Below, in pieces: positions 10,602 through 29,276 of a DNA stretch of 64,000 nucleotides; position 1 is the first letter of the stretch, and every line of letters begins with the position of its first letter. A program made the position numbers and the translations under genes. Origin of the DNA: Oscillospiraceae bacterium (lineage in GTDB: Bacteria > Bacillota > Clostridia > Oscillospirales > Oscillospiraceae); assembly GCA_016292255.1 (NCBI GenBank), contig JAEEZZ010000066.1, positions 1 to 64,000 on the forward strand, given 5' to 3'. The notes under the pieces are model-generated. The model was not told the DNA's origin, did not search any database, and was given only the letters and a program-made list of their open reading frames with translations.

Positions 10602-11882
10602 CTACTCATCTTGCTTGTTGTCCTCTTCTCCATATTTCCATTCCAAAGCCATATGGTTCCATGCTTTCTGTAACAATAAACTCCCTTCTTTATCGCAAAT
10701 AGATTTGGCAATGTGCGTTTTAAAGACAATTGCTTCAAAATGTGGTGGATATTTGCCCGCCCGTTTGCTTAGCCGACACTCCAACACAATTGGGTATTCG
10801 TCGTTATATGGAGCATTAACACACTCTGCTTTTCTGATATGTTTTTCGGAATAACTGTCAAAAGGTTTACCTAAACGTGAAATGGTAGATAGTTTTGTCT
10901 CATTCCCACTTGTTACACAAAGAAAAGGGGCATATGTAAAGTCACGATTCAAAGATAACTGTTCTTCAATATTTCTACTAAAACAATCAAATTGCAAGGA
11001 ACCATCTCCATATTGAACATTAACGATATTAATATCGCAAATACAATACGGCTTTCCATCTTCGGAGTAATAGTATATACAATTCTGCAACAACAAACGA
11101 CTAAATGGCAATGGGCTTTGGTGCTCTCGCATTAAGAGATCTGCTTCGTATGTTGTGGATAAGATCTGCTCTTTTTCATTTACAAGCTGTGCTTCCGATT
11201 CATCTTTTGTGGGAGTAGGTTTATACGGCTTATAATAATATCTGCATGACGGCCAATACTCCTCAAATATTCGTGCCTGGTCATCATCCCGAATATACTT
11301 ATTAGCCGCTAAAAGAATAACCCATGCCGCTACAGCGTAATAGTCTTTCTTTGTTTGAAGCTTTATCTCCAGAATGGGGCCAATTTGCTTCTCACAATAG
11401 ATGAAGAGCGTTAATTCTTTTTCGTCTCCGCGAAGTTCAAGCTTTTCTTTACTTCTTGACCAAACGGAGAAAAAGTCTCTCACTTCTCTTTCTACATCAT
11501 GTAGGGTATAAGATCTTTGCCCACTCTGTCTGTAGAAACGTTTATATTCAAAAAAAGGCAACTCGAAAAATGTAATCTCGGGCTGATCATGGCCAAGCCA
11601 CATACTAATGCTTGAAATCCTTTTTTTCCATTTGCTTTCTCCAAATGAATAGCCCCCATCGATAAAAAAGCACAACCCTCCCCTACCTATGACATCCGTA
11701 TCATCTTCCGAATTGCTGTTTAGTACTCTAATTTCCCCATAACTTATCACTAAGGGCAATTCCGAGTGAATATCTATGAATACCCCGCAGCTCTTCTCAA
11801 CTTCCTTTGAAATCAGTACCCGATCACCTAGAAGAGCGTTCCTCCCGGATAGCGATCTGTTTGCATCCTGCATAGAATCCAT
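10602..11882 (-). CDS. Uncharacterised 426 aa protein, distal gene of defence operon
   Basis: Long ORF, colinear with the defence operon; no family recognised by eye. Confidence 0.6.
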   Translation of the reverse strand: MDSMQDANRSLSGRNALLGDRVLISKEVEKSCGVFIDIHSELPLVISYGEIRVLNSNSEDDTDVIGRGGLCFFIDGGYSFGESKWKKRISSISMWLGHDQPEITFFELPFFEYKRFYRQSGQRSYTLHDVEREVRDFFSVWSRSKEKLELRGDEKELTLFIYCEKQIGPILEIKLQTKKDYYAVAAWVILLAANKYIRDDDQARIFEEYWPSCRYYYKPYKPTPTKDESEAQLVNEKEQILSTTYEADLLMREHQSPLPFSRLLLQNCIYYYSEDGKPYCICDINIVNVQYGDGSLQFDCFSRNIEEQLSLNRDFTYAPFLCVTSGNETKLSTISRLGKPFDSYSEKHIRKAECVNAPYNDEYPIVLECRLSKRAGKYPPHFEAIVFKTHIAKSICDKEGSLLLQKAWNHMALEWKYGEEDNKQDE

Positions 11883-11973
11883 AATATGCTCCTAACCTAA
11901 TGCTGACGATAATTGCTTTTTGTCTTCTATTCCCATATAGAAACAGAAACAATTACTGCGTGGTTCTGCTGAA

Positions 11974-12897
11974 TTACTGGCTGTTTAGCCACTTAACCAT
12001 TTTCGTAGGATCCCGGAAGATTTCCTGATCAACATTTTCAAACTCATATTGGTCTTTTTCTACGGAATCGGACGAATCATCATAAAACTCATCCTCATCG
12101 TCTTCCTCTTCTGGATCTAGTTCTTCTCCAAATGGATTGTCATCCTCTTCATCATCCATTTCAAGGAGCATAAGGTCAAGTTCCTCACTTATGCTTTCCG
12201 TCGAAGTATTATATGACTCATCGTAATCAACATAATCACAATCATATTTGTGTTGCGGTTCAGTCAAAGCACGCTCAAGATAATCGTTGAGGGTTTCTTT
12301 GTCAATTCCATCAATTCCAGCAGCGGAGAAATAATTAATTGGGATTATTGCATTGGGCATTGGTTTGGTTGATAAATAATAACCTCTTGCCAACATATAC
12401 ACCATGTCAATAAAGTATTCACGACCGCTCGATATCGACATATTTGCAATGTCGAGTCGATGAAGAAGCCGATCATAGTCATCAATTGTTGGATACCAAT
12501 CCGAGAGCAGACATTGCAATCCAAACCCTACAAATGAAAGCATAACGTCATTATCACAACGAAACAAACAGATCGAAGCGGATGATCCAACAAGAGGATG
12601 TATTGTCGTATGAATGTTATGTGCTACTTGGCTGCGATGCAATCTATTTGACAGCAGATTAATTGAAAAAAAGACACATCCATTTGCAGAAAACAGACGA
12701 GATATATTGTTATACTCTCTAAACATGTCTCGTTGCTCGCGGGTCAACGAGACATTGTGCTTGTTGTCAAAATACGCGAACCGTTCTGGTGAATGGTTAA
12801 TGAATTCCGGCTTGGAGGTGGCAACATGTCCAGCACTGGAGAACAGTTCCATCGCATATGTATAGAATGTTTCTGCTTCCCAATCTTGGCTTGACAC
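11974..12897 (-). CDS. Uncharacterised 307 aa protein with strongly acidic C-terminal tail
   Basis: C-term LLEMDDEEDDNPFGEELDPEEEDDEDEFYDDSSDSVEKD. Confidence 0.6.
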   Translation of the reverse strand: MSSQDWEAETFYTYAMELFSSAGHVATSKPEFINHSPERFAYFDNKHNVSLTREQRDMFREYNNISRLFSANGCVFFSINLLSNRLHRSQVAHNIHTTIHPLVGSSASICLFRCDNDVMLSFVGFGLQCLLSDWYPTIDDYDRLLHRLDIANMSISSGREYFIDMVYMLARGYYLSTKPMPNAIIPINYFSAAGIDGIDKETLNDYLERALTEPQHKYDCDYVDYDESYNTSTESISEELDLMLLEMDDEEDDNPFGEELDPEEEDDEDEFYDDSSDSVEKDQYEFENVDQEIFRDPTKMVKWLNSQ

Positions 12898-12937
12898 ATT
12901 GCCACCTCCTCGCTTTTTGGTATTTGCTACTGGCTCT

Positions 12938-13489
12938 CTATCTGATTAACTGTGCGAGTTCATCCGCATAAGAAATACCTTCAAGTTCTTTTTTGAATGT
13001 TGTCATTACCTCGTATGTCTTGTTAAGATAGTCATCGCTTGTTTGGCAACCATCCGTAAACTGCTCATACATTACTTCGATTCCTCCACGAACATAGTCA
13101 TGAAACAGTTCCATATTCTTATGAAATTCATCGGCTTTTTCAGGTTGCGTGTCATAGCGGAAGGCTCTGTTGATTCGCTCCTCGGGTGAAAGCTCCGTTT
13201 TTTTGTCAAGAAGCATAACCATGCGATAGAGGAAAACGCAGTTATCTCGTTCATTTGCAAAAGCATCCGCATAAACACGAGCGCGATCATCAGAAGAGGT
13301 GTCGCGTTTTGCTGTGCGACTATAGAGTAACCCAAAAACTGCTGCATTCATATAAACATCAATATATCTTTCAAACAACCTTGCAGCCGTCGGATTATCG
13401 GGGCTTTTATCATCCCGCGCGTTTTTCTTTGCAAGAAACTTCAGATATGTAGCATGTTTGCCATTTATCGTATAATCGTTCTCAAACAT
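12938..13489 (-). CDS. Uncharacterised 183 aa protein, phosphorothioation-island associated
   Basis: 12 bp downstream of the Rad50/DndD-like ATPase in the same operon. Confidence 0.6.
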   Translation of the reverse strand: MFENDYTINGKHATYLKFLAKKNARDDKSPDNPTAARLFERYIDVYMNAAVFGLLYSRTAKRDTSSDDRARVYADAFANERDNCVFLYRMVMLLDKKTELSPEERINRAFRYDTQPEKADEFHKNMELFHDYVRGGIEVMYEQFTDGCQTSDDYLNKTYEVMTTFKKELEGISYADELAQLIR

Positions 13490-13501
13490 GTTGCCGCCTC
13501 C

Positions 13502-15484
13502 TTAGTTAAGACGGGTTAAGGTTTCACTGATCTTCACTAAATGATACCTCTGTCCAACCCGTTCATTCATGACTGGTTCCGCATAGTTCCAGTCTTTCTG
13601 CATAACAAACATAATAACTTGCTCAGCAATCTCCGGCAGAACCTTGGAGATATTAGCTGTATGTGTTTCATCAGCATTTGAAAAAGGAGCATCCATCACA
13701 AGAGGATATGGCTCTGAGGAAAGATTAATGCCGTTTTCTGAGCGATCAGTGACGATTTTTCCCTTTGCTAATGCAACAAGGCCCGCAATAAACGCAAAGT
13801 TCTTAACTCGGTTAGAACCTTCGGATTCGCCAGCGGCAATTTCCTTATCAGAGATAGTAGTCAGCAACTCCACATGATACTTGGTGTCAATCGCAACACG
13901 CCTATGACCGTGATACATTTTTTCAAATATTTCATTGACTTTCGTTTCCAAATCCTCACGGATATTGAACTCTTTCTCTTTATAAGTTTCTGTAAGCCAT
14001 TCGCGAACTCTCTCGGCATAGGCAATAATTTCCATCGCTTGCCGGTTTTTCTCAGATACTGCCGTAAGAGAATCGTAAATTTTCTTATACCGCTCAATAT
14101 CATTTTTCTGAGCGCCGTCTTCTCGATTCAAACGGTCTTTTTTTGAATGGAGATCGCGAAGACGTATTCTAATATCAGCTAATTCAGATTCGTATTGACG
14201 CATGTTTTCCTTGCCGGAAATTTGATCTCGAATTGTTTGTAGCTCATCTTCCCAATCTTGGATGCGGCCTTTTGAGCGAAGGATGGCCTTATAGCGTTCA
14301 TCAAGACTGTCATATGTGCGTCCGGCGGGTCGAGAAAAACTATTGAGTTTTTCCCTATAGTGTCGCACGGTATTTCCAATAGATTCAGGTGGCACATATG
14401 CCAGTTCAGCCATCAAGTGTTGATATGCGTCATTTCCCTCTTTGATTTCCTGCCCACAGATACAACGGCCACGTTTAATGAGTTCCATGATAGTGGGCTT
14501 TGTCAAATCACGTATCCCCTTATCATCAACCTTGACCTCTTTGAGAAAAGCGCTTGCTGTAGCTAGAAGGGGCTGTGCAAAAAACGCGAGAGATCCTGCG
14601 CTAAACTCCCGGAAATAAGCCGTTGTTGCATCATCAAGCGCTTTACGTTCTGTGGAGATCCTGCGTTCCAGGTCATCTTTCTTTTTCTGCATGGAAGCTG
14701 TGGTTTGGTTATCTCGCAAAATGGCGTCAAGCTGTTCTTTGCGGGCATCATACTGATTAATCTGAGATTCGCAATCTCCCAATTGCTCTGCAAGCGCAGA
14801 CCGTTTTGCTTCTGCTGTTTGCATACGATTAAGAGCTTCTTGAGCTTTTGTGTCTCCGTCTAAGTCCATACTTCCGTACAGTTTTCCAATTACCGTCGTC
14901 TTCTTTGTACGGTCTCCAAGATGCTTTATTGCAGCATCCATAATCGACAAGCCTAAAAGCCCTTTAACCGCCTCGGCAACATCTTTTCTCGAGCTAATCG
15001 AACTGACACGCTCCGTATCAAAGAAGAAGTAAGAGGATAAATCTTCCGGAAGAATGTTATTGATTACTTTCTCAACTTGGGAGGCTTTTACAGACTCGGT
15101 TTGGCCATCTCCTTGTTTATACGATACCTTAATAACCGGAACACTCTCGCCCCTGACATTACCGTTTGAACAGTTATACCTTTGAGTTCGCGTGATAAAG
15201 TACTCTATGCCATTGTGTAGAACAGTGATTTCTACCTCTACGACTTTCTGCTCGCCACTTCGCATTTCTGCGGCAAGCTCATAATTGAGGAGAAAATCCG
15301 GGCGTTGGTCAAAGTTAACTTTCCCATAAAAGCACCAGTTGAATGCCTGCAAAAGAGTAGTTTTGCCGAATGTATTATCACCAAGGATGATGGTGACATT
15401 TTTCTCCGGGTCACAGGAGAAATCCACCTTTGTTGTTCCCCGGAACTGTCGAAAGTTCTCCATGCGTAACGACTTAATCAGCAT
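13502..15484 (-). CDS. Rad50/SMC-like AAA ATPase related to DndD
   Basis: MLIKSLRMENFRQFRG start, Walker A GDNTFGKTT, CICGQ zinc-hook-like motif within coiled coil, LVMDAPFSNADETH Walker B/D-loop. Confidence 0.75.
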   Translation of the reverse strand: MLIKSLRMENFRQFRGTTKVDFSCDPEKNVTIILGDNTFGKTTLLQAFNWCFYGKVNFDQRPDFLLNYELAAEMRSGEQKVVEVEITVLHNGIEYFITRTQRYNCSNGNVRGESVPVIKVSYKQGDGQTESVKASQVEKVINNILPEDLSSYFFFDTERVSSISSRKDVAEAVKGLLGLSIMDAAIKHLGDRTKKTTVIGKLYGSMDLDGDTKAQEALNRMQTAEAKRSALAEQLGDCESQINQYDARKEQLDAILRDNQTTASMQKKKDDLERRISTERKALDDATTAYFREFSAGSLAFFAQPLLATASAFLKEVKVDDKGIRDLTKPTIMELIKRGRCICGQEIKEGNDAYQHLMAELAYVPPESIGNTVRHYREKLNSFSRPAGRTYDSLDERYKAILRSKGRIQDWEDELQTIRDQISGKENMRQYESELADIRIRLRDLHSKKDRLNREDGAQKNDIERYKKIYDSLTAVSEKNRQAMEIIAYAERVREWLTETYKEKEFNIREDLETKVNEIFEKMYHGHRRVAIDTKYHVELLTTISDKEIAAGESEGSNRVKNFAFIAGLVALAKGKIVTDRSENGINLSSEPYPLVMDAPFSNADETHTANISKVLPEIAEQVIMFVMQKDWNYAEPVMNERVGQRYHLVKISETLTRLN

Positions 15485-15495
15485 GTCTTATCACC

Positions 15496-15657
15496 TCAGT
15501 AATTCTTTTTAGCTTCATCTGTAATGATGCGGCGAATTGTTTCTACCATCTGCTCCGTGGTTTTCTCTCGTGTTTTAAGGTTTTCTTGTTCAGCTTTGAG
15601 AATCTTGTACTTCATTGCGTTTAGCCGCTTCTCCTGAACATCCAGGTCACTAGTCAT
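15496..15657 (-). CDS. 53 aa coiled-coil small protein between helicase and SMC-like ATPase
   Basis: MTSDLDVQEKRLNAMKYKILKAEQENLKTREKTTEQMVETIRRIITDEAKKNY; its start overlaps the helicase stop region. Confidence 0.55.
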   Translation of the reverse strand: MTSDLDVQEKRLNAMKYKILKAEQENLKTREKTTEQMVETIRRIITDEAKKNY

Positions 15658-17833
15658 ATTCTTCAACCTCCTCAGTGATAATATCGCCATCTATGTTATA
15701 GCTTCTTTGAATTGCAGATATAAGTGAATCAGAATCAAACGGATTCTCTGCAATTGCCGCAAAATCTTTCATTCGGATAATTTCACGTTTAGCCAACGAC
15801 TTAACACTTTCTATCACATCCGAATCATAGTTTCGTACTTCATCAAGCGGAATTGGCAAAGTAATAAAATCAAAAATTACAGCGCATCTTTTGCCCAAAT
15901 ATTTTCTTAGAACTCTTCCTCTTCGTTGCACATACTCCTTTGGATTTGTACTACTAGCAAGAATAAACGCAGTCCGTATACTGGGGATATTAACGCCTTC
16001 ATCCAAGCAGCGGATAGCAACCAGCGCTTGAAGATGGGTGCCCTCCGCGAAATCAGCCTTTATCCGTTCTCGCTCCTCTGCGTTTTCCGCTGAAGTGAAC
16101 TTTGTTACTCGCATTTGTAGATCATTGCCTAGCATAGCAGACACAATGTCTATCTGACGCGCTTCTTCAACAGGAGGTTTATTCTCCTCGTAATCAACAT
16201 CATGCATTGTCGTTGCACCACAATATACAAGTATCTGATTTTCATTCACATAATCTTTCATCAAACGTCGTAGTGCCATAATTTTGTCTGAAGCGCCCGC
16301 TACTATTCGCGCTCGCTTTATTAGTAGCATCTTCGCATATTCGCTTAACTTGACATTTCCATCTTTATCGAGGTGTATGTTTTTTCGTATTTTTGATGTT
16401 AGGTCAAGATAATTGCCCAGTTCATTCTCGTTGAGCGACACAGGAACCGGATGATAATAATACGGGGTCAACATATCGTTGTCGATAGCCGCTTTAAGTG
16501 TATACTCTATACATTTATCGCCAAAGTAATCGTACAGCTTTTTTGTCCCCTCGGGGTCTCCATGACGATCAATCGTTGCAGAAAGAGCCAGGCGATACGG
16601 AAAATGCGGCAGAAGCGTTTTACTCAGTTTTTCAGCGCCAAAGTTGTGCGCCTCGTCTACAACCAATACAACATTGCCACGAAGTTTTGCCATCAAATCT
16701 TGCACATAATCAATGGCAAACGTAGCATTTGTTGAAACCATGCAGAAATGTTTCTGTACACCTAGATTAAAGCTTGCAACAGCAGTTTTCAGCCGGTCCC
16801 GCCAATTTCGCTGTGAAGAGGCAGAGTAGCATACTATCGGTTTCATTCCGAACGCAATGATATCTTCTTTCCATTGTTCGACCAAGTGTTGATACGGACA
16901 AATAATTATCACTGCAAGAGTTTGTTGCATATCTGTATATAGCCTAGATATTGCAGCCAGTGCTGTATATGTCTTTCCAGTACCCGTTGCCATGTCGAAG
17001 ATCCCAACATAGCCTCTATTGGCCCACTCAGCAATCGCATCCATCTGATATTGACGCATATGAACATAAGGGGGAATCATTGGGCCCGCTGATGCAGCTG
17101 GTTCATCAACAGGCAATACTTCTTCCATGGTAGGGTTATCATCGAGTCCGGTATCGATACGATTATTCACTCTGTATCGGCGAAGAATCTCCTCCTTAAC
17201 ATCTGGAAAATCAATAACCCTTATGCTCGGCTCATAATCTTCCCACATCGCATTAAAGGCAGATTGCTTCATATATACGCGGTCTGCATCTTGGGTCCAG
17301 GAAGGAAATACATCAATTGCCTCGTAATTCTGTGTAAATGCGTTGGCACTTTCGTTCATAGAACCAGAAAACGCAATAATATTCCCATCACTATCATACA
17401 TTAATCCGAGTTTTTCATGAAACATGCCGATAGTATTTTCGTCTTCAAGGAACGCTATTTTTATCTCTAACCTTCCCGCTGCAATAAGGTTACTAAGTAA
17501 ATTCAACCGTGCTTCTTCAAACTTCCCCTTAGGTTCTCGGAGTTCACGAAGTAATGCCTCCTTGATTACTTCGTCACGGCGACGAATTCCATCATTGATA
17601 GCATCAACATCTTCAGGCGAAAGACGAGGAGAGGCAATCATTTGAATAGAACCGCCGTTTTCAATTAGACCGCAGATGCCTGCCGTGAGGGATAGAAGGG
17701 ATGAAGATGAAAAGAAGCCAACAGCTCTCTTATATGAAACCGCCTGTTTAAGGACGGGATTATAGAAATCTCGAATCACATTGTCAAGCCGTGATCTATA
17801 CTCTGGTTTTAAGTCAATGTCCTGGAAGCTCAT
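15650..17833 (-). CDS. DEAD/DEAH superfamily 2 helicase with N-terminal phospholipase D-like nuclease domain
   Basis: HEKLGLMYDSDGNIIAFSGSMNES (HKD-like), MATGTGKTYTAL Walker A, VVDEAHNFG, C-terminal VQRRGRVLRKY motif VI. Confidence 0.85.
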   Translation of the reverse strand: MSFQDIDLKPEYRSRLDNVIRDFYNPVLKQAVSYKRAVGFFSSSSLLSLTAGICGLIENGGSIQMIASPRLSPEDVDAINDGIRRRDEVIKEALLRELREPKGKFEEARLNLLSNLIAAGRLEIKIAFLEDENTIGMFHEKLGLMYDSDGNIIAFSGSMNESANAFTQNYEAIDVFPSWTQDADRVYMKQSAFNAMWEDYEPSIRVIDFPDVKEEILRRYRVNNRIDTGLDDNPTMEEVLPVDEPAASAGPMIPPYVHMRQYQMDAIAEWANRGYVGIFDMATGTGKTYTALAAISRLYTDMQQTLAVIIICPYQHLVEQWKEDIIAFGMKPIVCYSASSQRNWRDRLKTAVASFNLGVQKHFCMVSTNATFAIDYVQDLMAKLRGNVVLVVDEAHNFGAEKLSKTLLPHFPYRLALSATIDRHGDPEGTKKLYDYFGDKCIEYTLKAAIDNDMLTPYYYHPVPVSLNENELGNYLDLTSKIRKNIHLDKDGNVKLSEYAKMLLIKRARIVAGASDKIMALRRLMKDYVNENQILVYCGATTMHDVDYEENKPPVEEARQIDIVSAMLGNDLQMRVTKFTSAENAEERERIKADFAEGTHLQALVAIRCLDEGVNIPSIRTAFILASSTNPKEYVQRRGRVLRKYLGKRCAVIFDFITLPIPLDEVRNYDSDVIESVKSLAKREIIRMKDFAAIAENPFDSDSLISAIQRSYNIDGDIITEEVEEYD

Positions 17834-17845
17834 ATTAAACCACCT

Positions 17846-18991
17846 TTACAAATTCTCCTCTATATCATCAAGGGCATTCTTCAGTTCTTCAAAGTCCTTT
17901 TCACTTGTGAGCGCATTTACACTCAAGCGGATTGTCCCTGAAGGAAAAGTCCCAAGAAACTGATGGGCTTTCGGCGCACAATGCAGCCCCGTTCTGACAG
18001 AAATACCTCGCTCTGCAAAGATAGCACCGGCGCTATCGCTACTTATAGCATCGAGTAAACAAGAAACAATACCAACGTATTTACAACCTTCGTTATTACC
18101 TATCACAGTAAGAAAGTCATAACTAGAAAGAATCTGCAATAACCTTTTCCGTCGTTTCTCCTCCTCGAAAAATAATCTCTCCACGGACATTTCTTTTATC
18201 CATTTTAGTGCTGCATTTAAGCCTGCAACTCCAGCAATGTTAATTGTTCCCATTTCATACTTTTCGGGAATGGCATTTGGCATACCCTGATTTGCTGAGT
18301 CATAACCAGTCCCGCCGAACAATATGGATGGGAGGTTAATCGTCGGTTTCATAACAAAGCCTGAAATACCGGTTGGCCCAAAGAGTGTTTTATGGCCAGC
18401 GAAAACAGCAAAGTCAATTGTCTCAAGCCCTGCATTTATCTCGATTAGTCCAGCCGTTTGTGCCATGTCAGCAAGCGTTATAGCGTTGTATTCTTTGGCC
18501 AACTCAAAGATAGCTTCAATTGGCGCAACAAGTCCAATAACATTGCTGGCATGGCTAACAATTACAAAGTCAGGTTTAGTCGCATCAAATTGATAGCGTA
18601 TTCGCGTCAAATCATATTCAAGAGATTGCGAGACAGCAAGCTCCGTAACCGTGATTTGCCCACGCCGTTCATAATTGTAAAGAACGCGGGTAACGGCATT
18701 GTGCTCAAATGGGCTAATATATATGTTTTTTGCTCCTCCAGCGATTACCCCTTGAATAATCATGTTAAGTGCAATTGTCGCCGTTGGAGTGAACACTACT
18801 TGCTTTGCTGAACAATGTAATAGTTCTTGAATGAGCGTCCTCGTCTCATCAATAATACCTTTAGCTGTGTTCGCCAAAGCATATCCACCTCGGCCTGCAC
18901 TTCCACCATAGTTGCGGTAGAAACTGTCCATAAAGGAATAGACCACATCTGGCTTTGGATATGTAGTTGCTGCATTATCGAAATACGCCAT
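17846..18991 (-). CDS. Cysteine desulfurase (class V aminotransferase; SspA/DndA-like)
   Basis: FDNAATTYPKP start, FAGHKTLFGPTG PLP-Lys motif, SVRTGLHCAPKAH catalytic Cys region. Confidence 0.88.
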   Translation of the reverse strand: MAYFDNAATTYPKPDVVYSFMDSFYRNYGGSAGRGGYALANTAKGIIDETRTLIQELLHCSAKQVVFTPTATIALNMIIQGVIAGGAKNIYISPFEHNAVTRVLYNYERRGQITVTELAVSQSLEYDLTRIRYQFDATKPDFVIVSHASNVIGLVAPIEAIFELAKEYNAITLADMAQTAGLIEINAGLETIDFAVFAGHKTLFGPTGISGFVMKPTINLPSILFGGTGYDSANQGMPNAIPEKYEMGTINIAGVAGLNAALKWIKEMSVERLFFEEEKRRKRLLQILSSYDFLTVIGNNEGCKYVGIVSCLLDAISSDSAGAIFAERGISVRTGLHCAPKAHQFLGTFPSGTIRLSVNALTSEKDFEELKNALDDIEENL

Positions 18992-18995
18992 TTTG

Positions 18996-19382
18996 TCAAT
19001 CCCCTTGTATTAACTGATTTGAAGAGTCAATCTCTAAGTACTTAACTAAGCGTGAATACATATATTTATTTGGATCAATTCCAAAATCGATGTTTATCGG
19101 CTTGTCATCCATCGCACAGGAAAAATGGAAATTACCAAATACTTTAAATAGTTCATTTTGATCAGTTCTGGTTATTATACCTTTGTCGAAGGCTTGTTGA
19201 GCTGTTTTCTCAAAATCACATAAACATTCCCAAAAGCTCTCTTCCAGTGCCAGAGTAATCTCACCTACATCGATCTCCTCGTGTGCGGGCTGCATAGATT
19301 GAACGTAAACCTCACATCCAATGAGGTCGTGAGTATTCTCGCTGTAACAATTAATATCTAGTAAGAACTTAACCTCACCCAT
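18996..19382 (-). CDS. Uncharacterised 128 aa protein between SspC-like ATPase and cysteine desulfurase
   Basis: ORF with 4-bp gap to the desulfurase gene. Confidence 0.5.
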   Translation of the reverse strand: MGEVKFLLDINCYSENTHDLIGCEVYVQSMQPAHEEIDVGEITLALEESFWECLCDFEKTAQQAFDKGIITRTDQNELFKVFGNFHFSCAMDDKPINIDFGIDPNKYMYSRLVKYLEIDSSNQLIQGD

Positions 19383-19420
19383 AATAAACCTCTTGTTTTC
19401 TCTTGTTCCAAGCCTTCATC

Positions 19421-22400
19421 TCAACATAGCTTTTTAAGAACTTCCATTAGAATCTGGCGTTTCTCTTGTTCCGAGATCGAGTGGCCCATAGCGTCAAGCG
19501 ATGCAGTGATTTGATTAAACAGTAGTTTTCCTCTGGATGTGACTTCAACCTTATCAAAGCGCCTAACGGTATTCTTTCCGTCTTCATCAGCAAAGGTAAC
19601 CTGATAACTAGAGGTTTCGTTTATGGTCTCTGCAACTGTCGTGTCATGAAATTCTCTCGCCGTCTGCATGTATTTCACAAGGGCTTCGAAAAATACCTTT
19701 TCTGTCCGCCCATCCCAGTCTTCAATTCGAAGTCCTGTCGCGAGCTTAGCAAGTCTTGTAATGAAAAAATCCTCGTCGTTAGTTGCGTTCCTAAGGTGCT
19801 GCAAAAACCGTTCTGTTCCGTCAGGGAAAAGCTGCTCAAAACTCTTTGGATCTAAGGACTCACACCATTCCTTGACTACTGCTGTTAAAGTGGCATTTTT
19901 GCCGGATTCCTTGTCCTCCCTGGGAAGGAACCGGAGCTTAGTCTCTTCTATCAAATGCATTTTGAGCTCGCTAAGAAGTCCGTCAAAAAGTGTCTTCGCG
20001 CCGATGACATCGCCAGCTACATCTGCTGTAAAGTCCTCGTAGGCAAAAGTGGTCGGCAGCTTTTTAAATAACAAATCCGATCCACTTGCATTTGCTCTGA
20101 GAACCTTCATCATCTCTTGCTGGCGTTTTCCGATTTTAATGCCATTCGGACGAATCTTACACTCTTTCGAAAACTTAGGAAGCGCCATATACCACCGTCG
20201 CATAGCGTTAGCGACGTAATCATAAGAGCTTCCAGCCTTCTCTGCATCAATGACGTAGTCGTCGAATGCCAAAGCTAGCCGTGCAATGTAATCTTCTTTT
20301 TCTGGATTCCAATCGAGGTACTCAATTGAGAAATTACTCGGCTCGCTGTTAATCTGAACCAACACATCTAGGTTCGTCGGTACCGATCCAAAACGATCAC
20401 TAATCACGACCTGGGGCCGATAGTTGTGCATGACTACGGCTACATAGATCGGGATCAGTCCATTACGAAGGCCAATGTGGTAGTCCGGCGAAGTCAGTCT
20501 ATTGTATAGCTCCGAGAAACTAATCCGCCCATTCTGACGAGTCTCAAGCACAAAGTTCTCTATCGTCTCAAGCATATTCCGCATTGCTGCGTCCTCTGGC
20601 TGCAGATTGAGTTGAGAGATGCCTCCTTCCTCGTTCCAGATGCCTGTCCGAAGCAACGTACTACGCATAATGGACACTTCTTGTCCTGTGCCGGAAAGCC
20701 CGAGGTTAGGTTCAAGCTCATTTCGAAGAAGCGCACTAATAATCTTATTTCGGCTATTTGCAGCAATGCTGGTTATCTCATTTTTGTTGACAGATTCATT
20801 GTTAATAACGGGAGTCAGTCCAAATACTCTATCACAAATCTGAGACATCACTTCTGTCAAGCCGGATTTCCGACGCACGCTTATTATCTCTCCGTCATGA
20901 TAATAGACTGAGCGATAGCTTTCCGGATGTGTATACGAACTGATGAATCCATTGATGACTTCCTGCAAGTCCTCGAACACAACTTCATATTCATCGAACA
21001 GAACCGGATCGTCAGTGGTCTGGTCCCGAAGTTGTTTTACCGCGGCATATTCTCGAATCACCCCATCGATCTCTCGGAAGTGTTTAGGCAACACAAAGAT
21101 GAAGCGATCAAAACCCTTGCTAGTTTCCTTAACGATGTCAGAGATTTCTTTAACCTGGTTTTCACTATCAGGTATGATCCCGTAAATGACGCCATCTGAC
21201 GGAATACTCTCGCTCTTTATATTCCAATCAACATCATCAGTTATCTCGCTCCCATCGATAAACTGGAAGCAGAAAAACCTCGTCATCCCACGTTCGTCAT
21301 TGTATCGCGATGGATACATATAGTTGTCAAAGTTAGCAGCGTTAAGCACGCCTTTTGCAGTGACTCTGCCAGCTTGAGCTTCTATCTGATCGTGAATTTT
21401 CTGGTGAATATCGACGCCCGACGTCTGCTTTAGGCGCAGATAATCATTACTCCGCTTGATATATACAACAAACTCTTTCTCGATCAGATCGGTAATTGCT
21501 TGCTCGATCTCGTCGACATCGTAACTTCCAGAGTATATTCCGATAATCTGTTCTTTGGTTGGACTGAGCCTTTCATACTGTTCGAGAATGTAAATCAAAG
21601 ATATTGTCTTGACAATCTTGCTTCCGAGGGTCCCTTCCGGAATCTGATTAAGAATGGCACTCGTCAAAACAAAAGTATCATGGATTCCTCCAGCATAAAC
21701 TTCCTTCTTGAACAATGGCTCAAAGTAATCATAAATCTGATCCGGCGTCACCAGAGTAAAATCGTTCTCATAGACATCGAGGAACGAGTCAAGCGTGGCG
21801 GTTCCTTCCGCAGACAGGAAGGTAAAGAGCGTTCGCTCGTTCTGCGCAACGCGTTCAGACAGCCTTGGGAGTATAAAAGTCGAGACCGGGTGAAGCGGGA
21901 AGCATCCTTTTATTGCCGTCTCAATTTCTCCCTGAGCATCAGTAAACATCTGATGCCTCCGGTAACGCGTAAAGAGTGCTTCAAAGTCCAGAGCATGCGC
22001 ATTGCAGAAAGTGCTCCAAAGAGGGTCCTTATGTTGGATGACAGAGGAAATGACCTCGTAGGTCTGGGTAAAGTTATTGTTCAAGTGGATATGCTTGAAG
22101 CGCTCGGATACTCCTCGCCAGCCATCTGTTTTTTCCTTAGGAAGTTTGTCGATGTAGTTACTTATCTCCTTATGGGAAATGAGCATCAGATGAAGTTGTA
22201 GCGCTCCACTCCGACAGCACTTCTCAGCAAAATCCTGCAGCATCTTCGTGTCACTTACTGAAGCATCGACTATGTTAGCCTCTAAGAATTTGCTGAACTC
22301 ATCGTAAACCACATAAAGACCCGTATAGCCCATCGGTTTGAGGCTCTTTGCAACACTTTCATAGAGTTCTACAACATCGAAGCCAAGGAATGGATTAAAC

Positions 22401-23026
22401 ACACTTCCGGCAGTCAACGTCGGATAGATTCGTTCAAAGGTCTCATATGCGCCTACATCATAGCTTTCGAGACGTTCGATCAAAATACTGACCGGTTCAT
22501 CAATAGCTTCCTGGAACCTAGTAAATGTCTCCGGAAATTCTTTCTCCCAGCGACGAATCACGTTAGTCGCAGCATGATAGTTAGTTTCCGGCATAGCCGA
22601 TATAATGTCATGCTCAGAAAGTGTTCTCTGGAGGGAAAGCAAGAATGCTTGCGTGAGGCTCGTATTGCTACCGCTAATTACGACGGGAAGAATTTTGGTA
22701 TCGCTCTCGTAATAGTTTTGCACAAGCTGATAAAGCCTCGGATTCTCTTGTATCTTCGGCATCATCTTTTCGAACAGTGCCAAATCACGTTTTAGGAGCA
22801 TTGAAAGAATAGAAAGCACAATATGAGACTTGCCTTTACCATATGCTCCGATCAGCACTCTCGCCCGGTCGGCCGAAGCAGGGTTAACACTGAGTAATAT
22901 TTCTTCAAGAAGGCTCAGTGCAGACTTGGTCGGTATAAAGTTTCTTAGTTTTTCATCACTTCCGAGGTCGTACCCGATGTTAACAGAGTACTGGAATCCC
23001 GAGGCAACAGAAATCATATCACGCAT
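19421..23026 (-). CDS. Large P-loop ATPase, SspC-like component of phosphorothioation system
   Basis: RVLIGAYGKGKSHIVLSILSMLL Walker A; about 1200 aa; follows the DUF4007 gene with an 8-nt overlap if the start is 23026. Confidence 0.7.
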   Translation of the reverse strand: MRDMISVASGFQYSVNIGYDLGSDEKLRNFIPTKSALSLLEEILLSVNPASADRARVLIGAYGKGKSHIVLSILSMLLKRDLALFEKMMPKIQENPRLYQLVQNYYESDTKILPVVISGSNTSLTQAFLLSLQRTLSEHDIISAMPETNYHAATNVIRRWEKEFPETFTRFQEAIDEPVSILIERLESYDVGAYETFERIYPTLTAGSVFNPFLGFDVVELYESVAKSLKPMGYTGLYVVYDEFSKFLEANIVDASVSDTKMLQDFAEKCCRSGALQLHLMLISHKEISNYIDKLPKEKTDGWRGVSERFKHIHLNNNFTQTYEVISSVIQHKDPLWSTFCNAHALDFEALFTRYRRHQMFTDAQGEIETAIKGCFPLHPVSTFILPRLSERVAQNERTLFTFLSAEGTATLDSFLDVYENDFTLVTPDQIYDYFEPLFKKEVYAGGIHDTFVLTSAILNQIPEGTLGSKIVKTISLIYILEQYERLSPTKEQIIGIYSGSYDVDEIEQAITDLIEKEFVVYIKRSNDYLRLKQTSGVDIHQKIHDQIEAQAGRVTAKGVLNAANFDNYMYPSRYNDERGMTRFFCFQFIDGSEITDDVDWNIKSESIPSDGVIYGIIPDSENQVKEISDIVKETSKGFDRFIFVLPKHFREIDGVIREYAAVKQLRDQTTDDPVLFDEYEVVFEDLQEVINGFISSYTHPESYRSVYYHDGEIISVRRKSGLTEVMSQICDRVFGLTPVINNESVNKNEITSIAANSRNKIISALLRNELEPNLGLSGTGQEVSIMRSTLLRTGIWNEEGGISQLNLQPEDAAMRNMLETIENFVLETRQNGRISFSELYNRLTSPDYHIGLRNGLIPIYVAVVMHNYRPQVVISDRFGSVPTNLDVLVQINSEPSNFSIEYLDWNPEKEDYIARLALAFDDYVIDAEKAGSSYDYVANAMRRWYMALPKFSKECKIRPNGIKIGKRQQEMMKVLRANASGSDLLFKKLPTTFAYEDFTADVAGDVIGAKTLFDGLLSELKMHLIEETKLRFLPREDKESGKNATLTAVVKEWCESLDPKSFEQLFPDGTERFLQHLRNATNDEDFFITRLAKLATGLRIEDWDGRTEKVFFEALVKYMQTAREFHDTTVAETINETSSYQVTFADEDGKNTVRRFDKVEVTSRGKLLFNQITASLDAMGHSISEQEKRQILMEVLKKLC

Positions 23027-23933
23027 TTTGTACCTCCTGACTCTGCTCATCGATAGAAGAATAAAATCGTTCTACGCAGCCTAAGAAGTCCAACTCGGTA
23101 TGAATGGTAATCACATCAAGCCCCGCTGTTCTGTTTATCTTGATAAGGCCCAGCCGTTCAATACGGTACAGAGCATCAAGCATGGTAATAGAGTCGAGAT
23201 TGAACACCTTGCCGATATTGCATGGAGCAGTTAAAAGTTCATTAAGACTAATCTCGTTTCTGCCATTCGCATTTTTTACGATAACAGCCAGGACAACATA
23301 GGGATTGAGAGTATCGCTTGCCGGGATACTCTTCTTGTAAGTCTTTTTTCGCTTGTTAAGAATATCGACCAGTCCGAGTTCGCCAAAGGGACAATCTATG
23401 TTGTTTTCCGGATTCACCCGATCCGGGTTTGACTTATAGCGCGGAAGATAGGTATTAATGATGCACTGGAAGTCATCATTAAGAGACCTAATGGCGTACT
23501 CCGTCTCTGTGTCTTCCATCTTGATGTACTTTTGAAGCGCAGTCACAAAATCTTCCCGCGAGAATTCCGACATAGAGAACTCGTTAAAGAAGAAATACCA
23601 AGCCGTCGCTTCTTCTTTCTGCGAAGCAAGGCAATACTGTAGAAGATAGAGCGTTCCGAGTTCCTCAATATAAGTATCGTGCTCATAGATCAGCTTTCCG
23701 AGGTCAGTAAAGCTCTGCGTCCGCTTCCCTTTATTCGGCTCCTCCGTAAGGCCAACTGTCTGAAGCCAATACCTAAGCGCCTTAACCATATTTGCTCCGA
23801 TCCCAAGGACATCCATCGGATTCTCGTCGTGCGAAATGAACACATCGGGCTTTTTTGCAACATATCGCATGCCCTTACTAAGCCATCCTTTTCTGATAAA
23901 GAACGTGTCATGAGCTCTAAATTTCATCGGCAT
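23019..23933 (-). CDS. DUF4007 family protein (SspB-like)
   Basis: KFRAHDTFFIRKGWLSKGMRYV...LGIGANMVKALRYWLQTVGL matches the DUF4007 signature as I recall it; located between SspD-like and SspC-like genes. Confidence 0.75.
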   Translation of the reverse strand: MPMKFRAHDTFFIRKGWLSKGMRYVAKKPDVFISHDENPMDVLGIGANMVKALRYWLQTVGLTEEPNKGKRTQSFTDLGKLIYEHDTYIEELGTLYLLQYCLASQKEEATAWYFFFNEFSMSEFSREDFVTALQKYIKMEDTETEYAIRSLNDDFQCIINTYLPRYKSNPDRVNPENNIDCPFGELGLVDILNKRKKTYKKSIPASDTLNPYVVLAVIVKNANGRNEISLNELLTAPCNIGKVFNLDSITMLDALYRIERLGLIKINRTAGLDVITIHTELDFLGCVERFYSSIDEQSQEVQNA

Positions 23934-23952
23934 CGCCGTGACCTCCAAACGT

Positions 23953-25668
23953 TTACTTTGTTCGCAAATACTTGTCCATCATGCATCCGCCATCAAGGTA
24001 TTTCGCAGTCATACACATTTTGCAATGGACGCATTTCCCGGGATCGATAAAATAAGTATCCCCAACTATTGAAATTGCGCCTTGCCGACAAATAGATTCG
24101 CACTTAAGGCATTTTCTGCAAGCATTATATTTTTTGATTTGGTATCCAACCATTCGTTGCAAATCATCATGGTCCGCAACATTCATTGTTCTAACCTTGA
24201 CAGCATAATCGTATCCGTCTTGGTTGAAAGGTTGGATTGATAGTATCGGAACATTTGTACGGACATCCAAGATAATAGTTTCTCGCAAGAGTTTTTTCCC
24301 AAGCTCTGGAGCAGCTTTCCCAAACGGAACAAACATTCCGACAAGCTCCTCATCAAAAGGCCTAACAAGGCGATATATTTTGGCATGATCTTCCGTCGTA
24401 CAGTTGGTAAATCGAATCTTTACGTCCCCGGCAGATGCAAGGCCATTTCCACCTTGACGGGCTTTCCACTTTCCGCTATCTACATAAACTTCTGGATCTG
24501 GCTTGCCAATCTGTTTCGCAAAAGCAATAAGAAACTCTCTCCACTTTTTTGACTGTTCTGGCATATATATTTTTGAAAGGAATTGTGCTCTCAGGTTATT
24601 GTTTGGGCAGCACCAACAACCAACACGATCATATCCCAGCCGGTAAGCGGAGTTAAAGTCAATCTTCTCGGCCAAAATGTAAAGCCAGATATCAATATCT
24701 TTCCAGAAGAAAATGGGGGAGGCAACAGTCTGCTGCTGGATTTTGACTGACTCAGCGTTGTCCTCAATTCGATTATACTTGCTTCGGCTGACTGATTCAG
24801 ATTTCCGAATTCCATAGAAGGTCAGGATCTGTTGACTCCGGTACATGCTACTAATAACTCTAGTTATTGGGCCAGTTTTAAACATGGAGCAACACCAACG
24901 CATCATTCGCGCAGGGGGACCAATGTCTTCACATACATCGTAGAAGTCCTGTTCCTCGTTCTTAGCAATCATAAAGATTGCCAGCGGATGGGTAGCCCTG
25001 AATCTGTACGCATACTCAATGGTAGCGGGGAATTCTAGCGTAGTATTACCAAAAATGTGAACCAAGCTGGGATTACTCAACGCTTTTGTTACAACATCTG
25101 CCGTTACGGTAGAATCTTTTCCACCGGAAAATGATATTACAATGTTTTCCTCTTTGAATTTTTCTGCGGCTTTGCGAACAAAACTAAAGGCTTCGTCTCT
25201 CAGATATGAAAGCCTGTGTTGATTAGCTTTTACAAAAAGGGTTATGCTTCTATCAAAAGCCGTGTAATCTATCGACTTGCTATATACTTTAACCTGTTCG
25301 GCCAGTAAATCTGTGTTAGCTTCGGAAAAAGTCTTCAACGGAACATTTAATGATTTCCCGTCGATATAGTATCGTGTAGTAGATGCCCAGCAAGAGCAGT
25401 CCATGTATAGCAACGGATCTTTGCCAAGCAATAAAGCAATCAGAAGCTTTTCTTCCGGGAAAACCGGCCTAATGTCAGAAGACAAATAGCGTGTTTTTCT
25501 TCTGCAGATGGGGCACACATCTTTACTTGGAGAATTGACAGTCTCAATGATGGGAATCCTGCAGTTTTCACACCAAAAAACTTCGATTGGGAGATCTTCT
25601 TCGGTATTCTGTCCACAAACAGGGCAGGTTCTCTCATTCGTTTCGATATTACAGTTTCTACACCACAT
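23953..25668 (-). CDS. PAPS-reductase/ATP-pyrophosphatase family protein (SspD/DndC-like) with N-terminal zinc ribbons and C-terminal ferredoxin-like domain
   Basis: ISFSGGKDSTVTADV PP-loop; N-term CRNCNIETNERTCPVCG and CENCR...CPICRR; C-term CRKCLKCESICRQGA...CVHCKMC. Confidence 0.85.
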   Translation of the reverse strand: MWCRNCNIETNERTCPVCGQNTEEDLPIEVFWCENCRIPIIETVNSPSKDVCPICRRKTRYLSSDIRPVFPEEKLLIALLLGKDPLLYMDCSCWASTTRYYIDGKSLNVPLKTFSEANTDLLAEQVKVYSKSIDYTAFDRSITLFVKANQHRLSYLRDEAFSFVRKAAEKFKEENIVISFSGGKDSTVTADVVTKALSNPSLVHIFGNTTLEFPATIEYAYRFRATHPLAIFMIAKNEEQDFYDVCEDIGPPARMMRWCCSMFKTGPITRVISSMYRSQQILTFYGIRKSESVSRSKYNRIEDNAESVKIQQQTVASPIFFWKDIDIWLYILAEKIDFNSAYRLGYDRVGCWCCPNNNLRAQFLSKIYMPEQSKKWREFLIAFAKQIGKPDPEVYVDSGKWKARQGGNGLASAGDVKIRFTNCTTEDHAKIYRLVRPFDEELVGMFVPFGKAAPELGKKLLRETIILDVRTNVPILSIQPFNQDGYDYAVKVRTMNVADHDDLQRMVGYQIKKYNACRKCLKCESICRQGAISIVGDTYFIDPGKCVHCKMCMTAKYLDGGCMMDKYLRTK

Positions 25669-25796
25669 TTTCGAGATAATCTCCTTTGTTCTGCCTGCGA
25701 TTATTGCATTTGAAATGTACCATCGACTCTGTAAATGGACATGTTAATCACAATTCTTCCATTTGCTACGTAAAGCGATAAACCCTGTACAATTTC

Positions 25797-26777
25797 TCAA
25801 CTATAATTGTTTTCGAGGAGCATAGCAAATCGTTGGACAGCACTTTCTGGTCCTTGAATCCTTACTTTCCGGCCGAATTGGAAGACCCAAGCGAAGAAGG
25901 TGGGGCTGAGGGAGACCTCGGCGGTTAGGAGGAAGTGGGTGTCGTCTACAACCTTCGTTTTGGCCTTATCGCCAAAGTGGTCGATGACGGAGTTCATGGC
26001 GTCCTCGTGGCAAAGAAGTTCTACCGTCGTGCGTTCACCATCGAAGAGCTGGAAAGCTTTTTCGCTGAAATCCGCAATGCTGTAGCCTTTGGGCTTCTTC
26101 ATGGCAGCGTCGTTGAGAAGCTTGGGCGTCTCGGAAATCCGGTCAACCCGGAAGGTGGCGACCTTCTCATGTTTATCGGACCAGCCTACCATGTAGTAGC
26201 AGTCGCCGTTCCAGGTCAGCGTGTAGGGACTGAAAACGTAGGGCTTTCCGTCGTTCTTGATACGCTTCCGCTTGGAGGAGGTGTAGGTGAAATAGAAGAA
26301 CTTGATCTTCTTCCTTTCGTTAATAGCCCGGTTGATTACGTCAATGAACTCGTAGATCTGCTCGTTCTTCGGCTTGATCCGTTCTGACAGGGAGATGTTT
26401 CGTTTCAGGTCTCCTGTCTGGTGGACGTTGGCCAGGGCCGCCAGCTTGTCCGTCAGGACCTTGCTCTTGGAGGCGGTGATGAACTTGGAGGAGGCCACGG
26501 CGTCGATCAGCAGCTTGAGCTCGGCCTGCTCGAAGGTCCGGGAGCCCAGGTAGTACTTATTCTGCGTGGAGTGGATCGTCCGCACGTCGTAACCGGCCAT
26601 AGCCAGGGCTTCCATGTCCCGCCCGATGGTGATGCGGAAGGAATCGATGCCCCAGCGCTCCTTCAGCAGCCGGATGCACTCCGGCGTGGAGATGGGATGC
26701 TCGGCGTCGCTGTCGGTCTCCAGAAGCTGTAACAGCCGCAGCAGGCGAATTCTGCTCTCGTTCTTTTCCTTTTCCAT
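25797..26777 (-). CDS. HTH/WYL-domain transcriptional regulator heading the defence operon
   Basis: N-terminal HTH; YVFSPYTLTWNGDCYYMVGWSDKHEKVATFRVDRI WYL-type core; GGAGG RBS 5 nt upstream of ATG 26777. Confidence 0.85.
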   Translation of the reverse strand: MEKEKNESRIRLLRLLQLLETDSDAEHPISTPECIRLLKERWGIDSFRITIGRDMEALAMAGYDVRTIHSTQNKYYLGSRTFEQAELKLLIDAVASSKFITASKSKVLTDKLAALANVHQTGDLKRNISLSERIKPKNEQIYEFIDVINRAINERKKIKFFYFTYTSSKRKRIKNDGKPYVFSPYTLTWNGDCYYMVGWSDKHEKVATFRVDRISETPKLLNDAAMKKPKGYSIADFSEKAFQLFDGERTTVELLCHEDAMNSVIDHFGDKAKTKVVDDTHFLLTAEVSLSPTFFAWVFQFGRKVRIQGPESAVQRFAMLLENNYS

Positions 26778-26798
26778 TGCAACCTCCAAAACGCAGAG

Positions 26799-26846
26799 AG
26801 GGCCGCGAAAGCGAGTCTTGTTCTACTCGGTTTCACGGCCCTCCGT
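26799..26846 (-). promoter_or_regulatory. Long inverted repeat in WYL-gene leader
   Basis: GAGGGCCGCGAAAGCGAGT / ACTCGGTTTCACGGCCCTC between promoter and start codon. Confidence 0.6.
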
Positions 26847-27047: not shown

Positions 27048-27674
27048 TCAAGCCGTAAAGAGTTTGCCATACTCGACGCGAATCAGTGTTTTTCCACAGG
27101 TAGCGCTCGTGCCAGAGCCATAGGCCATTTTGCCGAAGGTGTTGACAAAGCTGATGGTGCGGTCGGGATTGAGACACACAAAGGTTTCGTTAGGCCGAGC
27201 AGTAGGCTTTGTTCCGTCATAGAAGGTGAAACCCTCGGCTTCGGCCTGCTCCGCAAAGGCCCGGCCCAGCTCAGGCGTGGGGAGATGCACATAGACCTTC
27301 GCGTCCAGCCGGGAAAGGACGGTTAGCGGCTTGTCCTTCGGCAGGAAGCCCTGCAGCGTCTCGTCCTCTAACGGCGAGAAGCCGCAGGCCAGGCAGAGCG
27401 CCGCGCAGCGGGCAAGAATAGGCTGGCGCCCCTCTTCGGTCAGATCGCCACCTTTCTCTGCGCTTGCAGATACTTCATAAAACGCGCAGTATTGCCTGCA
27501 TAGCTCTCCACAAAGATCTTTCGCCGTAGCACAGTTTACGAAGTCCTCCCAGTCGCCGCGTTTCTCGTCCCAAACGCCAACCGTGATGCCGTGGGAGGTT
27601 TTTGCGATCTCGACATTGTCATCTTCTTTTAGGTACTCTTTGAACACGTTTAAAACTAATTTAATGTCTTCCAT
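27048..27674 (-). CDS. Uncharacterised 208 aa protein downstream of SAM-I-like aptamer
   Basis: ORF with RBS AACGAGGAG upstream; no family recognised. Confidence 0.6.
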   Translation of the reverse strand: MEDIKLVLNVFKEYLKEDDNVEIAKTSHGITVGVWDEKRGDWEDFVNCATAKDLCGELCRQYCAFYEVSASAEKGGDLTEEGRQPILARCAALCLACGFSPLEDETLQGFLPKDKPLTVLSRLDAKVYVHLPTPELGRAFAEQAEAEGFTFYDGTKPTARPNETFVCLNPDRTISFVNTFGKMAYGSGTSATCGKTLIRVEYGKLFTA

Positions 27675-27714: not shown

Positions 27715-27841
27715 GAGGCCCCGTCTGCACGACGGGGCCTCGGTCATCCATATCGTCCCCATCGTACAAGCTTTAGCACCTTACTTCTTAGCAGGTTGCT
27801 GTGCGGTCGCCGGGCTTGTCCCTCGCGCACTCTTTATAGGT
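27715..27841 (-). ncRNA. SAM-I / SAM-I-IV-like riboswitch candidate with downstream GC hairpin
   Basis: Minus strand: CCTATAAAGAGTGCGCGAGGGACAAGCCC..GACCGCACAGCAACC..AAGGTGCTAAAGCTTGTACGATGGG, then GAGGCCCCGTC-GTGCA-GACGGGGCCTC. Helices GTGCG/CGCAC, AGCAACC/GGTGCT, CAAGC/GCTTG and CCTAT/ATGGG. Confidence 0.6.
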
Positions 27842-27848
27842 CACCTAT

Positions 27849-29200: not shown

Positions 29201-29222
29201 CAATCGGAGTGATGTGTTTTTC

Positions 29223-29251
29223 GGGCATCTGCTTCGGCGGGTGCCCTTTTT
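29223..29251 (+). terminator. Intrinsic terminator with UUCG loop upstream of MBL gene
   Basis: GGGCATCTGC-TTCG-GCGGGTGCCC followed by TTTTT. Confidence 0.75.
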
Positions 29252-29276
29252 GTTTGCGCGAAAGGAGGGGGATGTT

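What the first reader, a model, noticed from the sequence alone, without database searches (positions are those of the whole stretch)
10602..26777. Hybrid phosphorothioation (Ssp/Dnd-like) defence island carried by the conjugative element
A colinear minus-strand operon encodes a WYL regulator, an SspD/DndC-like sulfurtransferase, a DUF4007/SspB-like protein, a giant SspC-like P-loop ATPase, a 128 aa orphan, a cysteine desulfurase, a PLD-helicase, a 53 aa coiled-coil protein, a Rad50/DndD-like ATPase and three unassigned proteins. Intergenic gaps are mostly a few bases. Established knowledge: DndABCDE and SspABCD install sulfur in the DNA backbone and pair with restriction modules (DndFGH, SspE, SspFGH). 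Here the core is Ssp-like but a DndD-like ATPase sits among the likely effectors. No SspE-type (DUF262/HNH) gene is visible. Inference: this may be an SspABCD-SspFGH-like or novel effector arrangement.
Basis: partly seen in the sequence, partly recalled or inferred. Interest (0 to 1): 0.85.

Follow-up and report, generated by a model that had tools for sequence, protein, structure and literature searches.

The report
Two-module DNA-sulfur phage-defence operon
A gut bacterium's conjugative element carries an operon that probably marks the host's own DNA with sulfur (the Ssp enzymes) and attacks unmarked DNA with a helicase-nuclease set (the Pbe proteins); both halves are known, but I found no description of this pairing, which recurs in at least six bacterial phyla.

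Summary
Window 10602-26789 (minus strand) is a compact operon: WYL regulator, SspD, SspB, SspC, a 128-aa orphan, SspA, four effector genes and two unassigned genes. The modification half is SspABCD-like; its SspD is the long, ferredoxin-tailed type shared with BREX-4 BrxP. No SspE, SspFGH, DndFGH, PglZ or BrxL gene was found in it. Of the 80 nearest PbeA loci, 63 carry SspB and SspC beside Pbe, in six named phyla. The halves are separate cartridges: tree distances agree within them (0.93-0.97; 0.80) and hardly between them (0.12-0.24). A gene right after pbeD travels with the Pbe half: the orf307 family in the window and 19 relatives, a SigA-like sigma factor in about 28, RNA-polymerase alpha-CTD/sigma-4 proteins in others. 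The island is cargo: a related element in the same genome has the same flanks without it. Phosphorothioation, defence and cleavage are inferred, not shown. I found no paper describing Ssp-Pbe pairing, but only part of the literature was searchable.

The parts
25797..26789 (-). WYL-domain regulator (ATG at 26777)
   Evidence: Pfam WYL 1.8e-12 and WCX 1.1e-5
23953..25668 (-). SspD-like PP-loop sulfurtransferase, 571 aa: zinc ribbon, PAPS_reduct with SGGKDST, C-terminal Fe-S cysteines
   Evidence: Pfam PF01507 6e-30; PADLOC BrxP 4.9e-76, SspD 9e-13; motifs conserved
23019..23948 (-). SspB, DUF4007 DNA-recognition protein
   Evidence: PF13182 4.5e-85; PADLOC SspB 8e-59
19421..23050 (-). SspC, 1209-aa P-loop ATPase
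   Evidence: PADLOC SspC 1.2e-129, ahead of BrxC 3.9e-50
18996..19382 (-). 128-aa orphan inserted between sspC and sspA
   Evidence: No relative in 149 genomes of the order, 80 related loci or viral contigs
17846..18991 (-). SspA, dedicated cysteine desulfurase
   Evidence: Aminotran_5 2.5e-69; TIGR01977 above cut-off; TGLHCAP active-site cysteine; tree agrees with SspB/C/D, rho 0.93-0.95
15650..17833 (-). PbeA, HKD (PLD) nuclease fused to SF2 helicase, 727 aa
   Evidence: PADLOC PbeA 6e-248; NCBIfam TIGR04095 domain, 520 bits against cut-off 600; HxK..D..GSxN motif in 79 of 79
15496..15690 (-). PbeB, small charged protein, 64 aa (53 aa from the internal ATG)
   Evidence: Position; homologues in relatives
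13502..15484 (-). PbeC, CxC-hook ABC ATPase, 660 aa (Walker A GDNTFGKT, hook CIC at residues 341-343)
   Evidence: PADLOC PbeC 1.1e-115, DndD 1.8e-39; CxC in 71 of 72 sequences
12938..13489 (-). PbeD, proposed DndE-type DNA-binding partner of PbeC, 183 aa
   Evidence: Conserved after pbeC in 74 loci; AF2 pLDDT 86; DndE only a weak structural match
11974..12897 (-). orf307, conserved occupant of the slot after pbeD; acidic tail
   Evidence: Family of 20 including the window; no family or significant fold match
10602..11882 (-). orf426, last gene, no known relative
   Evidence: None in 250 family genomes or viral contigs
26798..26843 (.). Inverted repeat (two 19-nt arms, 89% complementary) directly upstream of the WYL gene; possible operator or terminator

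Best explanation
This is a phosphorothioate-based restriction-modification system made of two exchangeable cartridges on a conjugative element. Modification cartridge (inferred from the families): SspA takes sulfur from cysteine, SspD passes it to the DNA backbone, SspB recognises the site and the SspC ATPase powers or scans, leaving phosphorothioate marks on self DNA. Restriction cartridge (inferred): PbeC and PbeD scan DNA and read its modification state, PbeA translocates on and cleaves or blocks unmarked DNA through its HKD active site, PbeB restrains or couples the complex, and the gene after pbeD (orf307 here; sigma-like or alpha-CTD/sigma-4 proteins in relatives) is a clade-specific fifth subunit of unknown role. 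WYL probably represses the operon. Shown here: gene content, intact catalytic motifs, module structure, recurrence and cargo status. Not shown: sulfur in DNA, phage defence, cleavage.
For: Strong family matches for SspA, SspB, SspC, SspD, PbeA and PbeC, with PbeB and PbeD in the expected places. Catalytic motifs kept: HKD 79/79 PbeA, CxC 71/72 PbeC, PP-loop 57/57 SspD, RxGxxC 66/68 SspA. Same arrangement in 63 of the 80 nearest PbeA loci; 9 more show partial Ssp genes on truncated contigs; of the other 8 only 4 have the full upstream flank. Tree distances agree within Ssp (0.93-0.97) and within PbeA/PbeC (0.80) but hardly between (0.12-0.24); the type of the gene after pbeD needs 3 changes on the Pbe trees, the minimum for four types, against 11-13 on the Ssp trees. 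Empty site in a sister element of the same genome: homology stops at 10396 and resumes at 27994. Both halves were shown to act in antiviral defence with other partners (PMC8092258, PMC6459918).
Against: PbeD has no detectable sequence similarity to DndE and only a non-significant structural match. SspD scores far better as BrxP than as classical SspD. Archaeal PbeABCD was reported not to cleave viral DNA (PMC6459918), in tension with the intact HKD site. There are no phosphorothioate or phage data. The window lies in a fragmented, 86%-complete assembly. orf128, orf307 and orf426 have no assigned role.
Confidence: 0.85

Rival explanations
1. The two halves are independent systems that happen to be adjacent in a defence island: a solitary or BREX-like Ssp modification unit next to a Pbe unit that uses another signal.
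For: Pbe units occur without Ssp on plasmids (L. plantarum) or with Dnd (Ruegeria); distances between the halves barely correlate; PMC10853773 argues that such modules are often decoupled.
Against: One apparent transcription unit with 12 bp between sspA and pbeA; the same junction in tens of loci across six named phyla; a Rhizobium plasmid has the same two halves in another order; repeated swaps that keep the pairing look like functional coupling.
Confidence: 0.12
2. It is a degenerate or variant BREX type 4 system.
For: SspD matches BrxP best; BrxC and DUF4007 are shared components (PMC12839542).
Against: No PglZ or BrxL match in any tested operon gene; SspC matches SspC models far better than BrxC; PbeABCD stands in their place.
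Confidence: 0.02
3. A variant of the best explanation in which the operon works by abortive infection: PbeA cleaves host DNA, or orf307/orf426 act as toxins, after phage sensing, with phosphorothioate as a safety catch.
For: PMC10853773 proposes suicide with PbeB as inhibitor; unrestrained SspFGH is toxic without modification (PMC8092258); orf307 and orf426 are unassigned.
Against: No direct evidence here; orf307 has no toxin-like match.
Confidence: 0.25

Closest known systems
DndCDEA-PbeABCD (Haloterrigena jeotgali A29, PMC6459918; reinterpreted in PMC10853773)
   Same: Same PbeA (PLD + ResIII + Helicase_C), small PbeB, CxC ABC ATPase PbeC, small PbeD, in the same order
   Different: Modification module here is SspABCD instead of DndCDEA; bacterial; an extra conserved gene follows pbeD
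SspABCD-SspE and SspABCD-SspFGH (PMC8092258)
   Same: Modification module SspA, SspB, SspC, SspD
   Different: No SspE, SspF, SspG or SspH; effector is PbeABCD; SspD is the long zinc-ribbon/ferredoxin type
BREX type 4 (brxPCZL; PMC12839542, PMC11931770)
   Same: BrxP-like SspD with Fe-S tail, DUF4007, BrxC/SspC ATPase, cysteine desulfurase
   Different: No PglZ, no BrxL
Solitary PbeAC systems (165 of 553 in PMC6459918) and Ssp modules without SspE/SspFGH (about 84% in PMC8092258)
   Same: Both surveys left partners unassigned
   Different: Ssp-Pbe pairing could account for part of both; I did not re-examine their strain lists

Membership tests
SspABCD modification module | SspB (DUF4007) | tested here: met
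   PF13182 E 4.5e-85; PADLOC SspB 8e-59
SspABCD modification module | SspC ATPase | tested here: met
   PADLOC SspC 1.2e-129
SspABCD modification module | SspD PP-loop sulfurtransferase | tested here: met
   PAPS_reduct 6e-30, SGGKDST; but the BrxP model scores above the SspD model
SspABCD modification module | SspA or a substitute desulfurase | tested here: met
   Dedicated, operonic, co-evolving with SspB/C/D
SspABCD modification module | Phosphorothioate in DNA | not testable with these tools
   Needs LC-MS/MS or PT-seq
PbeABCD | PbeA: PLD + ResIII + Helicase_C | tested here: met
PbeABCD | PbeC: ABC ATPase with CxC hook | tested here: met
PbeABCD | PbeB and PbeD small proteins in order A-B-C-D | tested here: met
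   64 and 183 aa in that order; conserved in relatives
PbeABCD | PbeD is a DndE-type two-RHH protein | tested here: inconclusive
   AF2 pLDDT 86; best DndE match 4lrv TM 0.54 by target length but E 1.7; hhalign finds no similarity
PbeABCD | Antiviral activity dependent on phosphorothioation | not testable with these tools
   Needs phage assays
SspFGH | SspF, SspG, SspH present | tested here: not met
   No match in the operon, though the models find the genes in a relative, L023
SspE | DUF262/GmrSD protein | tested here: not met
   No GmrSD match in the operon; found beside Pbe in L063 and L097
DndABCDE-DndFGH | DndC, DndE, DndF, DndG and DndH | tested here: not met
   DndC only far below cut-off; TIGR03184 (DndE) has no match in the window's genome; no DndF/G/H match in the operon
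BREX type 4 | PglZ and BrxL | tested here: not met
   No such match in the operon

The most novel reading that the evidence does not exclude
PbeABCD restriction modules have a fifth, clade-specific subunit, which in many clades is built from transcription-initiation parts (a SigA-like sigma factor, or RNA-polymerase alpha-CTD plus sigma region 4). They would find or stall invading DNA by recognising promoters or RNA polymerase, and orf307 in the window would be an unrelated protein doing the same job. Phosphorothioate restriction would then be coupled to transcription of the invader.
Probability: 0.25. Interest if true: 0.8.

Novelty: new variant of a known kind. Interest (0 to 1): 0.6.

Why it matters
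Surveys left many Pbe modules without a known modification partner (165 of 553 with neither Dnd nor a methylase nearby, PMC6459918) and most Ssp modules without a known restriction partner (PMC8092258). The Ssp-Pbe pairing offers a candidate partner for part of both groups. Repeated exchange of the two halves implies that one Pbe restriction set can read marks made by quite different Ssp sets, which bears on how self is recognised. The promoter-recognition proteins in the Pbe half are an unexpected lead on how restriction might be targeted, and cultured relatives make it testable.

Tried and rejected
SspFGH, SspE, DndFGH and BREX-4 membership were each tested and rejected. orf307 was first suspected to be a diverged sigma factor: profile comparison and the AlphaFold model with Foldseek give no support; weak hits to DHH/DHHA1 phosphoesterases (E 0.01, TM 0.2) and of one homologue to the ZorC C-terminus are below trust. 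PbeD as DndE: no support from sequence, weak from structure. Relatives of orf128 and orf426: none found. PbeA in viral contigs: one distant hit only. My first assignment of the gene after pbeD misplaced two loci (L101, where the sigma-like gene is one gene further on, and L105, where it lies upstream of sspD); one search corrected this. Both were still labelled 'sigma' in the tree test. The housekeeping-SigA comparison rests on a fasttree build with long branches, so 'one clade' is tentative.

Full report
WHAT IS THERE. The window is contig C80 (68.9 kb) of an 86%-complete, 168-contig assembly. Its nearest named PbeA relatives are Oscillospiraceae. On the minus strand from 26789 down to 10602 lies one compact operon: WYL regulator; SspD (571 aa); SspB (309 aa); SspC (1209 aa); a 128-aa orphan; SspA (381 aa); PbeA (727 aa); PbeB (64 or 53 aa); PbeC (660 aa); PbeD (183 aa); orf307; orf426. 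From SspD to orf307 the gaps run from -41 to +40 bp. GC content is 43% in the island against 55% and 49% in the flanks.

MODIFICATION HALF. SspB is a full-length DUF4007 protein (E 4.5e-85) and SspC matches SspC models at 1.2e-129. SspD has the PP-loop SGGKDST, but also an N-terminal zinc ribbon and a ferredoxin-like cysteine tail. It matches the BREX-4 BrxP model (4.9e-76) far better than the classical SspD model (9e-13). PMC12839542 describes the Fe-S tail both in BREX-4 PAPS reductases and in a subset of SspD, and PMC11931770 lists brxPCZL among the phosphorothioate-making families. SspA is a dedicated desulfurase: it passes TIGR01977 and its tree follows SspB, SspC and SspD (rho 0.93-0.95). 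No tRNA-thiolation or sulfate-reduction equivalog reaches its cut-off for SspD.

EFFECTOR HALF. PbeA matches PADLOC PbeA at 6e-248 and the helicase-domain model TIGR04095 'DNA phosphorothioation system restriction enzyme' at 520 bits, under its cut-off of 600. PbeC matches PADLOC PbeC at 1.1e-115, above DndD (1.8e-39), and carries the CxC hook (CIC) that PMC10853773 uses to separate this clade from DndD. Across relatives the HKD nuclease motif is present in 79 of 79 PbeA and CxC in 71 of 72 PbeC. The order matches pbeABCD as first described in archaea (PMC6459918). PbeD is said to be the DndE cognate (PMC10853773). Here that is inconclusive: the model is confident (pLDDT 86) and DndE 4lrv has the highest match probability in the list, but at E 1.7, and profile comparison finds nothing. 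No SspE, SspFGH, DndFGH, PglZ or BrxL match was found in the operon. The SspFGH models do work on a same-family Ssp locus (L023).

HOW COMMON. A scan of about 85,000 species genomes with a PbeA alignment returned the 80 nearest loci. Of these, 63 have SspB and SspC beside PbeA; 9 more have partial Ssp genes on truncated contigs; 8 have none, of which only 4 have a full 10-kb upstream flank. The 63 span Bacillota, Bacteroidota, Actinomycetota, Pseudomonadota, Campylobacterota and Planctomycetota, several through metagenome bins. Some loci lacking the long SspD carry a short PAPS-reductase instead (L102, L109). A Rhizobium plasmid has the same two halves in a different order, so the pairing has probably formed more than once. 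Elsewhere Pbe pairs with Dnd (Ruegeria plasmid) or stands alone (L. plantarum plasmid). These numbers apply to the PbeA clade near the window (at least 48% identity), not to all PbeA.

TWO CARTRIDGES. For 52 loci (the window included) with all six proteins, Spearman correlations of tree distances are 0.93-0.97 among SspA, B, C and D, 0.80 between PbeA and PbeC, and 0.12-0.24 between the halves. The window itself is an example: its nearest SspB, SspC and SspD belong to L089, whose PbeA is only 51% identical, while its nearest PbeA and PbeC belong to L030-L032. The break lies between sspA and pbeA.

THE GENE AFTER pbeD. In most loci a gene starts within about 40 bp of the pbeD stop. In the window and 19 relatives it is the orf307 family. 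In about 28 loci it is a sigma-70 family protein (regions 2 and 4 in 27 of 29 scanned) whose profile matches SigA end to end (E 1e-75) but which mostly groups apart from housekeeping SigA (tentative). In three loci it is a 908-912-aa protein with RNA-polymerase alpha-CTD repeats and sigma region 4 (for L059; L069 and L075 are its homologues). Related sigma-4 proteins lie upstream of sspD in L062, L066, L074 and L088, and 1026-1080-aa 'sigma factor-like' proteins lie directly before pbeA on plasmids. The type of this gene changes only 3 times on the Pbe trees, the minimum for four types, but 11-13 times on the Ssp trees. The gene therefore belongs to the restriction half. orf307 is not detectably related to the sigma proteins, and its model (pLDDT 75) has no significant structural match. 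Sigma-like parts occur elsewhere in defence: the PADLOC MzaA model matches these proteins, and PMC10853773 notes a sigma-related HTH in some DndH.

CARGO. The left flank carries MobL relaxase, Toprim, VirD4/TraG and an HTH protein. A second element in the same genome (contig C74, VirD4 82% identical) has the same genes followed directly by the SRAP gene; nucleotide homology to the window ends at 10396 and resumes at 27994. The whole island, with a 208-aa gene preceded by a SAM riboswitch, is thus inserted cargo.

HOW IT PROBABLY WORKS. Inferred from the families: the Ssp half writes phosphorothioate marks on self DNA; the Pbe half scans for unmarked DNA and the helicase-nuclease PbeA attacks it or blocks its replication. 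Xiong et al. (PMC6459918) saw replication blocked without cleavage in archaea; Rakesh et al. (PMC10853773) argue for cleavage; the fully conserved HKD motif favours a nuclease. None of this was measured here.

NOVELTY. Both halves are known families. I found no paper describing Ssp paired with Pbe; one early survey (PMC7464106) counted strains with modification genes and pbeA-D without saying, in the text I read, which modification genes. Only open-licence PMC papers were searchable, and the gut PT-gene survey cited in PMC11931770 could not be read, so this is 'not found', not 'absent'. I rate it a new variant of a known kind.

Noticed in passing
L055-L109 (e.g. L055:14882-15982); L059:14898-17624; L115:8921-12001: SigA-like sigma factors, or alpha-CTD/sigma-4 proteins, sit beside pbeABCD in many loci and plasmids.
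   Followed up: partly
27756-27842 (-), before the gene 27048-27674: SAM riboswitch (55.9 bits) upstream of a 208-aa protein of unknown family, inside the cargo.
   Followed up: no
26798-26843: Near-perfect inverted repeat directly upstream of the WYL gene; operator or terminator.
   Followed up: no
G000:C74 (L132) 5739-6353: Empty-site copy of the element in the same genome; a different WYL-like gene lies at L132:8419-9405.
   Followed up: partly
L023, L025: SspDBCA followed by SspF, SspG and an SspH/DndH-like protein (L023, same family; L025, same order, has the same layout); L023 has a second, diverged DUF4007 protein after it.
   Followed up: partly
L063:15819-18473; L097:8139-10295: SspE-like (GmrSD) protein encoded beside an Ssp-Pbe locus: two effectors with one modification set.
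   Followed up: no
29127-30605 (+): Metallo-beta-lactamase protein with an Ada-type zinc domain and similarity to defence MBL models (LmuA, Avs1a), next to an SRAP gene; possibly another defence gene.
   Followed up: no
40055-40132 (+); 63575-63659 (+): pemK leader RNA and a second SAM riboswitch outside the finding.
   Followed up: no
L102:9914-20572: Pbe genes placed before SspB-SspC instead of after: another arrangement of the same two halves.
   Followed up: no
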